64,000 bases of DNA from Legionella quinlivanii (lineage in GTDB: Bacteria; Pseudomonadota; Gammaproteobacteria; Legionellales; Legionellaceae). The notes under the pieces are model-generated. The model saw nothing but the letters and a program-made list of their open reading frames with translations, was not told where the DNA came from and did no database searches. Shown here in pieces: positions 32,870 to 37,191 of this stretch. The stretch spans positions 3,299,501-3,363,500 of the forward strand of contig NZ_UGOX01000001.1 of assembly GCF_900461555.1 (NCBI RefSeq), written 5' to 3'. The position numbers and the translations under genes are program-made. The number at the start of each line of letters is the position of its first letter. The first letter of the stretch is position 1.

Positions 32870-33006
32870 TACATATTAGCGCGGAAATGACATATAGCAA
32901 TATAAGCTTCTCCCCGTAAACATTACGGGGCGTAGTCAATACGGGAACAAAAAATAATTGAAAGTGAATATCATGAACTCATCATTTATTTGCGATGAGG
33001 TCAATC

Positions 33007-33876
33007 ATGAAAATCGTTTTATTAACTGGCGCACCCGGCAGCGGTAAAAGTACTCAGGGCAAAGCCTTAATGGCATTGAACAGCCAGTTTAAGCATTTGT
33101 CTCTGGGCGAAGTGGTTCGTCGTTCTCTGGATAATCCTGAACATCCGATCACAAAAAAATACAAATCTTTGATAAGTGAGGGAAATTTATTGCCAGATCA
33201 AGTTATTAAACAGATCCTGGCTGAAGAATTAGGCGCAATTAGTAACCAGGACAGCGTGATTTTACTCGATGGCTATCCACGCACCGAAGCACAATACCAG
33301 GACTTCATTGAAGGATGGGGGCAGCCTGCAGCTTTAATTCATCTGGATATCGACCAGGAGTCACTTGAAGGACGTCTGGCTGTTCGTGAGGATTCTCGCT
33401 GTGATGATAATCAGGATGCAATTCAAAGACGTTTGAATTTTTACCAGCAAGCGACTCTGCCCTTGATCAATCAGATCAAGGAAAATCTAGGAAAAAAAGC
33501 AATCAGTGTCCACCGTGCAGAAGCCATCCGACCCACCAGCCTTTTTATTTATGCGAACTTGCAGCGAATCGATGAAGTTCATGAGGTCTTGCAAAAGGCC
33601 AATGAAGTTCCAGTACAACAACCCGTTATTGACAGCGAAATTACGCCTGTCGGCTTAAGTTCTGTTATATCGCAACTGTGGAAAACCGGCATTGAGTACA
33701 AATCAATCAAGTCCTTGCAGGAAAATTATAAGGCACAGAATCTATCCTTTTCCCTGTTTAATAAAAAAATGGTATATCTTGAAACCGCAGCAGAAGTAAG
33801 AAAAGTACTGGAGTCTAAGAGCCATTTAGGTCATGTGTACCGGCATTTCTCACAGGCTGCCGGCTTGAAATACTAG
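33007..33876 (+). CDS. Adenylate-kinase-like domain plus P450 N-terminal segment (first half of amber-split fusion)
   Basis: 289 residues from ATG 33007, which has GAGG six bases upstream; ATG 32995 overlaps that SD. Residues 1-185 are an adenylate-kinase fold: P-loop GAPGSGKST (8-16), LLDGYPRTEAQ (AMP site) and a short-LID sequence REDSRCDD with the IQRRLNFY helix. Residues 205-289 are not adenylate kinase: NLSFSLFNKKMVYLETAAEV and KSHLGHVYRHFSQAAG resemble the start of a cytochrome P450. The frame stops at TAG 33874-33876 and continues in frame into the next entry. It is probably one gene with a nonsense codon, or a readthrough product. Confidence 0.65.
   Translation: MKIVLLTGAPGSGKSTQGKALMALNSQFKHLSLGEVVRRSLDNPEHPITKKYKSLISEGNLLPDQVIKQILAEELGAISNQDSVILLDGYPRTEAQYQDFIEGWGQPAALIHLDIDQESLEGRLAVREDSRCDDNQDAIQRRLNFYQQATLPLINQIKENLGKKAISVHRAEAIRPTSLFIYANLQRIDEVHEVLQKANEVPVQQPVIDSEITPVGLSSVISQLWKTGIEYKSIKSLQENYKAQNLSFSLFNKKMVYLETAAEVRKVLESKSHLGHVYRHFSQAAGLKY
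33874..33876 (+). other. In-frame amber codon inside the adenylate kinase-P450-APRT frame
   Basis: TAG separates two coding halves that share the same frame (32995 and 33931 differ by 936, a multiple of 3). The 18 codons between the TAG and the next possible start (33931 GTG) read as P450-like sequence and contain no stop. The GTG has no SD site. One base change would restore an open frame of about 826 codons from 33007. Confidence 0.8.
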
Positions 33877-35478
33877 TTTGTCGCCACTGATTCTGGCGAT
33901 AACCGTCATTTTGTCGATCAACAACAGCAGGTGAATGTATGGAAATTAATCCATAGTGCTTTCGGACAAACGATTAAGAGCGATCGCCAACGCATTGAAC
34001 GTTTAATCGATGAGCATCTGGATCGCAACTTTTTCGCCACAAAAACCTTTGAACTGGATACGGCATTCGATACATTTTTCAGCAGCTTCTGGTCAGAATA
34101 TCTATTTGGAAATCATGTATCTTTAGATGCTTATCAGCACACACGCCATCAGATACTGTCGGCAATGAAACAATGCTTTTATAGCAATTATTACAAGAGC
34201 CTCGATCCAAGCGGCTTAACGTCCTGGCTCTATGAGCTCCCCGTTAATAAAGAACTGCAAGACGCTAAAAAAGCGATTCAGGAATACATCGGCAAAGCAA
34301 CAAGTCAGTCGATGGTCAAACGCTTTGAGACGGACTTGAATTATTTCAATGAGAAAGAGCAGCTGGGTCTGGATGCGAAAACAATCGCGGCAATTGTTTC
34401 ATATTGTGTTTTTGATCTGATTTTTGAGCCTGATTTTCTTGAGAATGTCATGTATGAGGGGCTTGCTATAGCTGTAAAAGAACATACTGATCTTCGCGTT
34501 CCATCAGCGCGCGCCCGAATTTATGAACAGGGACTCGATAAAGGCTACCTCTTTCCCATCCGCTCCCGGATTCTGGATGAAGATATTCAATTGGCTGACG
34601 GTACCAGCCTCTCCGCCGGCACAATGGTCTGTCTGAACCTCAAGCAAGCAGGCATTTATCATTCGGCAGGCCCAAGACGTTGTGTGGGTCAGGCTTATAC
34701 GCATTATTTTAAAGAACATTTTTTCAACCGAATTGAGGCCGTTGACTTTAAAGTAAAGGAAGTCACAGAACCTGCGGACAGGCAAATCGGAAACGAAAAT
34801 GTACCTGTTTCACCAGAGCGGTATCTGGTGAGCTGGAAGTTAAGACGCGATGAAGCCATGCGCAATATGTCTCATCACGCCTACAAGGGAAACCGCTTTT
34901 TTGATGTATTAAAGTTACATGAAAATGCTGGTTTAAATAACCATATGGTTAAACAGATGACATTGAAAATTCAGCGCTATATAGAGAAGAACAATCTGCC
35001 ATGGAAAGATGTAGTCATTGCTACCGCTGAGGTGCGCGGGATTCCCATTGCCTCTCAGATCGCAGGTCAATTGCAACTGCCTCTTTACACTATTCGCAAA
35101 AAAGGGGGATATAAGATGCCTGATGAGGCAGTGCAACGCGAAAATATACAAAAAGGCTATGGCGATCCGGATGTACTAGAGCTTCCCACTGATAAGATTA
35201 AGTCTCTGGCAGGTAAAACGGTTATTTTTCTGGATGATGGTGTCGCGAGCGGCGAAAGCGCCGAAGCTTGCATCAAACTACTGGAAAAGCCTGTTTCCGA
35301 AGGCAAGAAGCCTGCAGTAGTTAAAATGTTAATGGCATTGTTACAGCACGATTATGTACAAACAAGCAAATTATCCCGGCTCCCTCTGGTAAAAACCTTG
35401 TTTGATTGCCGTTCCAAGGCAGCGCTGGTAACTGAAACGCATCAGGCCTCAGAACAGACTGGGTTAATTATGCGATAA
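33877..35478 (+). CDS. Cytochrome P450-like domain fused to adenine phosphoribosyltransferase-like domain (second half)
   Basis: Open from the TAG, with the first possible start at GTG 33931 (515 residues). The numbering here is from the GTG. WKLIHSAFGQTIKSDR continues the P450 C-helix region. The heme-binding loop is HSAGPRRCVGQ with Cys251, matching GxRxCxG except that Phe is His. The K-helix ExxR is degraded to TDLR and no AGxxT I-helix motif is found, so oxygen activation is doubtful. Residues 310-500 match an adenine phosphoribosyltransferase: EVRGIPIASQIAGQLQLPLY, RKKGG, and the PRPP loop VIFLDDGVASGESA (431-444). It would bind a purine base and PRPP. The combination with adenylate kinase points to an adenine-nucleotide theme. 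Confidence 0.65.
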   Translation, partial: FVATDSGDNRHFVDQQQQVNVWKLIHSAFGQTIKSDRQRIERLIDEHLDRNFFATKTFELDTAFDTFFSSFWSEYLFGNHVSLDAYQHTRHQILSAMKQCFYSNYYKSLDPSGLTSWLYELPVNKELQDAKKAIQEYIGKATSQSMVKRFETDLNYFNEKEQLGLDAKTIAAIVSYCVFDLIFEPDFLENVMYEGLAIAVKEHTDLRVPSARARIYEQGLDKGYLFPIRSRILDEDIQLADGTSLSAGTMVCLNLKQAGIYHSAGPRRCVGQAYTHYFKEHFFNRIEAVDFKVKEVTEPADRQIGNENVPVSPERYLVSWKLRRDEAMRNMSHHAYKGNRFFDVLKLHENAGLNNHMVKQMTLKIQRYIEKNNLPWKDVVIATAEVRGIPIASQIAGQLQLPLYTIRKKGGYKMPDEAVQRENIQKGYGDPDVLELPTDKIKSLAGKTVIFLDDGVASGESAEACIKLLEKPVSEGKKPAVVKMLMALLQHDYVQTSKLSRLPLVKTLFDCRSKAALVTETHQASEQTGLIMR

Positions 35479-36733: not shown

Positions 36734-36810
36734 ATTATGGAAAACAAATCGTTTTATAAAGAGTATACCATCAATTTATAATGTACATAGATAACACAGG
36801 AGTTAAAAAA

Positions 36811-37191
36811 ATGAGCTATCAATTTCATCATGTGGGTATTCCAACTACTGAGGTTCGGCCCGGCGAGCGATACAGTGCCCCATTTAAAATGTACACATCG
36901 GGCGGAGAGGCTCCAACACGTATTCAGTACCATCGCTTTGAAGAAGGTTGTCCTTTGCATCCACTGCTGCAGAGCAAACCTCATGTTGCATTCAAAGTCG
37001 ATAGCATTGATGAGGCAATACGCGGGAAAAATGTCATCCTGGGACCTTACTTTCCTTTCGAGGGGTTTAGAGTAGCGGCGATTGAAGAAAACGGCTGGCC
37101 TATCGAATTTATTGAAACCACCTTGTCCGAAGAAGAAATTTGGAGTGGCAGCGCTTATAAAAATTCGGTAATTTATCCTGAAGGAGAATAA
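36811..37191 (+). CDS. VOC/glyoxalase-fold protein
   Basis: About 126 residues from ATG 36811 (GGAG nine bases upstream; the longer frame adds ten residues with no SD). YQFHHVGIPTTEVRPGERY begins the first beta-alpha-beta unit, and HVAFKVDSIDEAI and WPIEFIE the second, giving the VOC fold. Candidate metal ligands are His residues in FHHVG and HVAF and Glu in EFIE. It is probably a small lyase, isomerase or resistance-type protein. It is divergent from the LysR regulator that likely controls it. Confidence 0.75.
   Translation: MSYQFHHVGIPTTEVRPGERYSAPFKMYTSGGEAPTRIQYHRFEEGCPLHPLLQSKPHVAFKVDSIDEAIRGKNVILGPYFPFEGFRVAAIEENGWPIEFIETTLSEEEIWSGSAYKNSVIYPEGE

What the first reader, a model, noticed from the sequence alone, without database searches (positions are those of the whole stretch)
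33007..35478. Adenylate kinase-cytochrome P450-adenine phosphoribosyltransferase fusion split by one in-frame TAG
Two adjacent ORFs share one frame, separated by TAG at 33874-33876 and 18 stop-free codons. The P450 homology starts before the TAG (residues 205-289 of the first ORF) and continues after it, with heme Cys in GPRRCVG. A C-terminal APRT-like domain (VIFLDDGVASGESA) and an N-terminal P-loop kinase bracket it. I know no described protein with this order. All three end domains handle AMP or adenine, so a purine-base modification or signalling role is an attractive inference. The P450 has lost ExxR (TDLR) and the I-helix AGxxT, so it may be a peroxygenase, isomerase or heme sensor. The downstream GTG has no SD, so the TAG either kills the gene, is read through, or is a sequencing error.
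Basis: partly seen in the sequence, partly recalled or inferred. Interest (0 to 1): 0.85.

Follow-up and report, generated by a model that had tools for sequence, protein, structure and literature searches.

The report
Legionella kinase–P450–APRT fusion, broken here
Some Legionella bacteria carry one large protein that joins an adenylate kinase, a stripped-down cytochrome P450 fold and an adenine-salvage domain; in this genome the gene is interrupted by a single stop codon, while several relatives keep it whole.

Summary
A 5' ORF (33007-33873) and a 3' stretch (33877-35475) share one frame, split by one TAG (33874-33876). They are pieces of one gene: 10 of 143 Legionellaceae genomes carry the family, 7 as a single open frame of about 820 codons, 3 broken differently. 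The ends are adenylate kinase and adenine phosphoribosyltransferase (APRT) domains. The middle matches no Pfam family, but profile comparison and a fold search with a modelled relative indicate a P450 fold. It keeps the Cys heme loop and lacks a conserved ExxR and AGxxT; its meander is short.

Context: only 12 of 143 Legionellaceae genomes have an APRT match, and in 9 of 10 carriers the fusion is the only one. Six of 7 intact copies, and none of 3 broken ones, sit beside a PAS-LuxR-type regulator gene; in two genomes a PRPP-synthetase-like gene follows.

Most likely this is a PRPP-dependent adenine-type salvage and activation enzyme with a non-canonical heme domain, recently inactivated in this strain unless the TAG is a sequencing error. 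The activity is inferred.

The parts
32997..33000 (+). Shine-Dalgarno-like GAGG before ATG 33007
   Evidence: read directly
33007..33873 (+). 5' piece of the gene (289 codons): adenylate kinase domain, linker, start of the P450-fold domain
33028..33054 (+). P-loop GAPGSGKST of the ADK domain (residues 8-16)
   Evidence: translation; ADK match residues 6-159
33874..33876 (+). in-frame TAG, the only stop inside the frame
   Evidence: row for G000 ('1 TAG')
33877..33930 (+). 18 stop-free codons between the TAG and the next listed start codon; protein sequence similar to that of the nearest relative
33931..35478 (+). downstream ORF from GTG, stop codon included; no Shine-Dalgarno-like run before the GTG
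33619..34850 (+). approximate extent of the P450-fold domain, interrupted by the TAG
   Evidence: by alignment with relatives; fold evidence
34660..34689 (+). heme-loop-like motif HSAGPRRCVG; Cys codon 34681-34683
34852..35367 (+). APRT domain
   Evidence: NF002636 match, residues 326-497 of the 3' piece
35221..35262 (+). PRPP-binding motif VIFLDDGVASGESA
   Evidence: the homologous stretch of a relative aligned to APRT structures

Best explanation
This is a three-domain protein of about 820 residues found so far only in Legionellaceae: short-type adenylate kinase, P450-fold domain, APRT. Supported by computation: domain identity, single-frame homologues, the lesion, and the neighbourhood. Inferred: the APRT end joins an adenine-type base to PRPP, giving a nucleoside monophosphate that the kinase end phosphorylates. 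The middle domain binds heme through the conserved Cys loop but has lost the ExxR and part of the meander, so it more likely senses a ligand or redox state, or does a non-monooxygenase reaction, than acts as a classical P450. A PAS-LuxR-type regulator and PRPP-synthetase-like proteins probably belong to the same functional neighbourhood. In this genome the gene is interrupted by one recent nonsense codon (or a sequencing error) and is otherwise open; it is not a natural two-gene arrangement.
For: 7 of 10 carriers have one open frame. ADK and APRT motifs are conserved. P450 fold. Heme-loop G.R.C.G is present in 9 of 9 relatives and in the window. The fusion is the only APRT match in 9 of 10 carriers. 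A PAS-LuxR-type gene is adjacent in 6 of 7 intact copies. A PRPP-synthetase-like gene follows that regulator in G002 and G008. Against the relative whose 3' piece is 94% identical, dN/dS is 0.23 and 0.17 for the two parts of the 5' piece and 0.07 for the 3' piece.
Against: No activity, heme binding or expression is shown. P450 is not found by sequence search. The structure model is of low confidence and the Foldseek TM-scores are modest, 0.30-0.50; the full-length model was poor. The N-terminal half alone matches P450s only weakly (P 0.02). All APRT matches of the fusions are below the TIGR01090 cut-off. The intact copy of G110 has no PAS-LuxR gene in the 613 bases upstream and none on that contig. 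Three of 10 carriers are broken, all in the first third or so of the gene, so the kinase end may be dispensable; it is also the least constrained domain in one intact pair (dN/dS 0.29 against 0.12 and 0.12).
Confidence: 0.5

Rival explanations
1. The TAG is a sequencing or assembly error and this strain's gene is whole.
For: It is the only stop in the frame, and the 18 codons after it resemble the relative's. Read accuracy of the assembly cannot be seen here.
Against: Two other carriers are also broken, each in its own way, so loss seems to occur in this family (their breaks could be errors too). Like them, the window copy lacks the PAS-LuxR neighbour.
Confidence: 0.3
2. The P450-fold domain is an active oxygenase or peroxygenase that modifies an adenine-type base or nucleotide, and the two end domains handle its substrate or product.
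For: The Cys heme loop is present in 9 of 9 relatives, and both neighbouring domains belong to families that handle adenine or AMP.
Against: No ExxR at the expected place, AGxxT in at most 2 of 9 rows against 19 of 23 P450s, and an Arg-to-Cys distance at least 18 residues shorter. None of the neighbours that were Pfam-scanned is a redox partner; not every neighbouring ORF was scanned.
Confidence: 0.2
3. The TAG is a natural boundary, and the P450-APRT part is translated separately by re-initiation.
For: In the two other broken carriers the lesion lies in the kinase region and leaves a long 3' frame.
Against: No Shine-Dalgarno-like run at GTG 33931; by alignment the start of the P450 fold lies before the TAG; 7 of 10 carriers have one frame.
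Confidence: 0.07
4. The protein is delivered into host cells as an effector.
For: Patchy distribution limited to one family of intracellular bacteria in the genomes searched.
Against: No secretion signal was tested. Both end domains look like metabolic enzymes, and APRT is otherwise nearly absent from the carriers, which fits a role in the bacterium.
Confidence: 0.08
5. The TAG is read through or recoded.
For: Only that the frame goes on.
Against: TAG ends 9 of 41 long ORFs of the window, this one included. The only tRNA gene found in the window is a tRNA-Lys; the whole genome was not scanned for suppressor tRNAs.
Confidence: 0.03

Closest known systems
Short-type adenylate kinase (AK1-like, Pfam PF00406)
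   Same: P-loop, LLDGYPRT and R..SRxDDN stretches; best solved relatives are AK1-type
   Different: N-terminal part of a fusion; below the NCBIfam adk cut-offs
Adenine phosphoribosyltransferase (TIGR01090, PF00156)
   Same: E.RG, RKKG, YG.D.ELP and DDGxASGxSA stretches align with APRT structures
   Different: C-terminal domain of a fusion; score far below the apt cut-off (58 against 185.85 bits)
Cytochrome P450 (Pfam PF00067)
   Same: Fold by Foldseek and VIA-align, heme-loop G.R.C.G, weakly colinear N-terminal part
   Different: No PF00067 hit; no ExxR or AGxxT; Arg-to-Cys distance 40 against 58-79 in 23 P450s
APRT / NTPase_I-T / PRPP-synthetase-like fusion beside a PAS-LuxR gene in genome G106 (L109)
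   Same: APRT-type domain, PAS-LuxR neighbour, same bacterial family
   Different: Other domain order; no kinase or P450 domain among its Pfam hits

Membership tests
Adenylate kinase | Pfam ADK gathering score and characteristic motifs | tested here: met
   93.4 bits against a cut-off of 26.8; a relative's motifs aligned to solved kinases
Adenylate kinase | NCBIfam adk curated cut-off (TIGR01351) | tested here: not met
   107.9 bits against 168
Adenine phosphoribosyltransferase | PRTase domain over the Pfam cut-off with PRPP-binding motif | tested here: met
   40.3 bits against 26.3; for a relative
Adenine phosphoribosyltransferase | TIGR01090 equivalog cut-off | tested here: not met
   55.1 bits against 185.85
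Cytochrome P450 | P450 fold | tested here: met
Cytochrome P450 | Cys heme-ligand loop G.[RHK].C.[GA] | tested here: met
   9 of 9 relatives and the window
Cytochrome P450 | ExxR of the K helix | tested here: not met
   only E..R pair in more than 1 of 9 rows lies after the heme Cys
Cytochrome P450 | PF00067 gathering score | tested here: not met
Cytochrome P450 | heme binding and oxygen activation | not testable with these tools
   needs protein

The most novel reading that the evidence does not exclude
A heme-thiolate purine-processing enzyme: a P450-fold domain freed of the ExxR/meander lock works between a phosphoribosyltransferase and a nucleotide kinase, under a PAS-LuxR-type regulator and with PRPP-synthetase-like partners, to make or sense a modified adenine nucleotide in Legionella.
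Probability: 0.2. Interest if true: 0.85.

Novelty: new variant of a known kind. Interest (0 to 1): 0.6.

Why it matters
A P450-fold domain without ExxR and with a shortened meander is a natural test of what those elements are needed for, and its fusion between two adenine-nucleotide enzyme domains points to a substrate class. The near absence of APRT from Legionellaceae outside these fusions gives a sharp metabolic prediction. No paper describing this domain order turned up in the literature searches made (listings and starts of abstracts only), which cover an open-licence library.

Tried and rejected
Sequence-only P450 detection failed (Pfam; PDB profile searches, no hit, and 42, four weak hits to other proteins). 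Full-length structure prediction was poor in the middle (mean pLDDT 53.7, pTM 0.32), and its PDB search listed only nucleotide kinases in the 50 rows shown. Viral contigs gave no relative, phage records one match, to the APRT part, plasmids no relative of the middle domain; with the full protein 199 plasmid records matched, none over 80% of the query, and the 20 listed cover only the kinase end. A pattern-based scan of 84,980 species genomes returned five loci, all Legionella. Wider searches for the middle domain found nothing convincing outside Legionellaceae: 369 class-level genomes gave the own genome and one weak fragment, 398 phylum-level genomes only the own genome at 1e-6. Direct profile comparison with the two other P450-like proteins of the own genome matched only the heme loop. 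Papers on cytokinin, P450 and APRT (listing and starts of abstracts) gave no bacterial counterpart; the cytokinin idea was dropped for want of evidence. A listing on P450s lacking ExxR was not read further. Of PMC4256840 I saw three passages: a table there lists a protein of unknown function with a P450 domain under an lha tag (L. hackeliae by recall); whether it is related was not tested.

Full report
Observation. The 5' ORF (33007-33873), the TAG (33874-33876), 18 stop-free codons and the GTG at 33931 are as described, and both sides are in one frame. The 5' piece is an adenylate kinase domain followed by a further stretch; the 3' piece ends in an APRT-like domain (motifs of a relative).

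Relatives. A search of 143 Legionellaceae genomes with the middle domain found it in 10; with the whole-length profile the same ten appear plus one genome with a kinase-only match. Seven have one open frame of about 820 codons (G001, G002, G008, G080, G110, G123, G151). Three are broken: the window by a stop; G007, which corresponds to L. quinlivanii ID143958 (L032), by a frameshift at a G run in the kinase region; and G106, which corresponds to L. rowbothamii (L035), by a frameshift a little further on. The equation of G handles with named strains rests on matching reading frames and is an inference. Outside the family nothing convincing was found.

Selection. Between the window and L. quinlivanii, dN/dS is 0.23 and 0.17 for two parts of the 5' piece and 0.07 for the 3' piece from the GTG on; four neighbouring genes give 0.025-0.143. 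In the intact pair G002/G008 it is 0.29 for the kinase, 0.12 for the middle and 0.12 for APRT. These ratios average over the time before any inactivation. The other three pairs are near or at synonymous saturation: the ratio was undefined for the middle in two of them and for APRT in one, and otherwise 0.09-0.19.

Context. TIGR01090 finds an APRT in only 12 of 143 Legionellaceae at 1e-5: the ten carriers, G150 with a true apt (the only one over the curated cut-off), and G163 with a fragment; 13 of 14 control genomes ring. In 9 of 10 carriers the fusion is the only match; G106 has a second APRT in a 1,060-residue APRT / NTPase_I-T / PRPP-synthetase-like fusion. More divergent APRTs could be missed. 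A LuxR-type regulator gene with a PAS-like region lies beside the fusion in six intact carriers: divergent in five, same strand in G080, where the regulator itself appears split into two frames. Its PAS part is over the Pfam cut-off in G151, G123 and G080, and weaker in G001, G002 and G008, whose membership rests on similarity to the others. The intact copy of G110 has no such gene in the 613 bases before it, where a 620-base control stretch detects it in three other carriers. None of the three broken copies has the neighbour. Six of 7 against 0 of 3 gives a one-sided Fisher probability of 7/210, about 0.03 (worked by hand), but the window and G007 are close kin, so the events are not independent. 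In G002 and G008 a PRPP-synthetase-like gene follows the regulator. Relatives of it occur in 7 of 143 genomes; all seven have a LuxR-type gene of this kind beside them (G007 by coordinates only, and the PAS part is below the cut-off in four of the others). Five of these seven genomes carry the kinase-P450-APRT fusion. In the window's genome that pair lies about 670 kb from the fusion.

Reading. The end domains suggest base to monophosphate to diphosphate, with PRPP perhaps supplied by partners. The P450-fold domain probably binds heme but is not a classical monooxygenase. The TAG is a recent lesion or a sequencing error: TAG is a normal stop here (9 of 41 long ORFs of the window, this one included).

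Noticed in passing
   Followed up: partly
L138:2222-5473, L139:4121-6349, L140:137-2215: PRPP-synthetase-like proteins, each next to a LuxR-type gene with a PAS-like region; L139 is in the window's own genome (L140's protein was not Pfam-scanned).
   Followed up: partly
L020:1357-2010, L046:1468-2082: A second, divergent adenylate-kinase-like gene in several Legionellaceae.
   Followed up: no
window 36781-37188: Protein without a Pfam hit whose look-alike (by eye) lies beside the second adenylate-kinase-like gene in L020:937-1329.
   Followed up: no
L090:1000-2862, L091:1204-2865: Two further P450-like proteins in the window's own genome, both over the Pfam cut-off.
   Followed up: partly
L095:9857-10342: The regulator gene next to the G080 fusion appears split between its PAS and HTH parts.
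   Followed up: no
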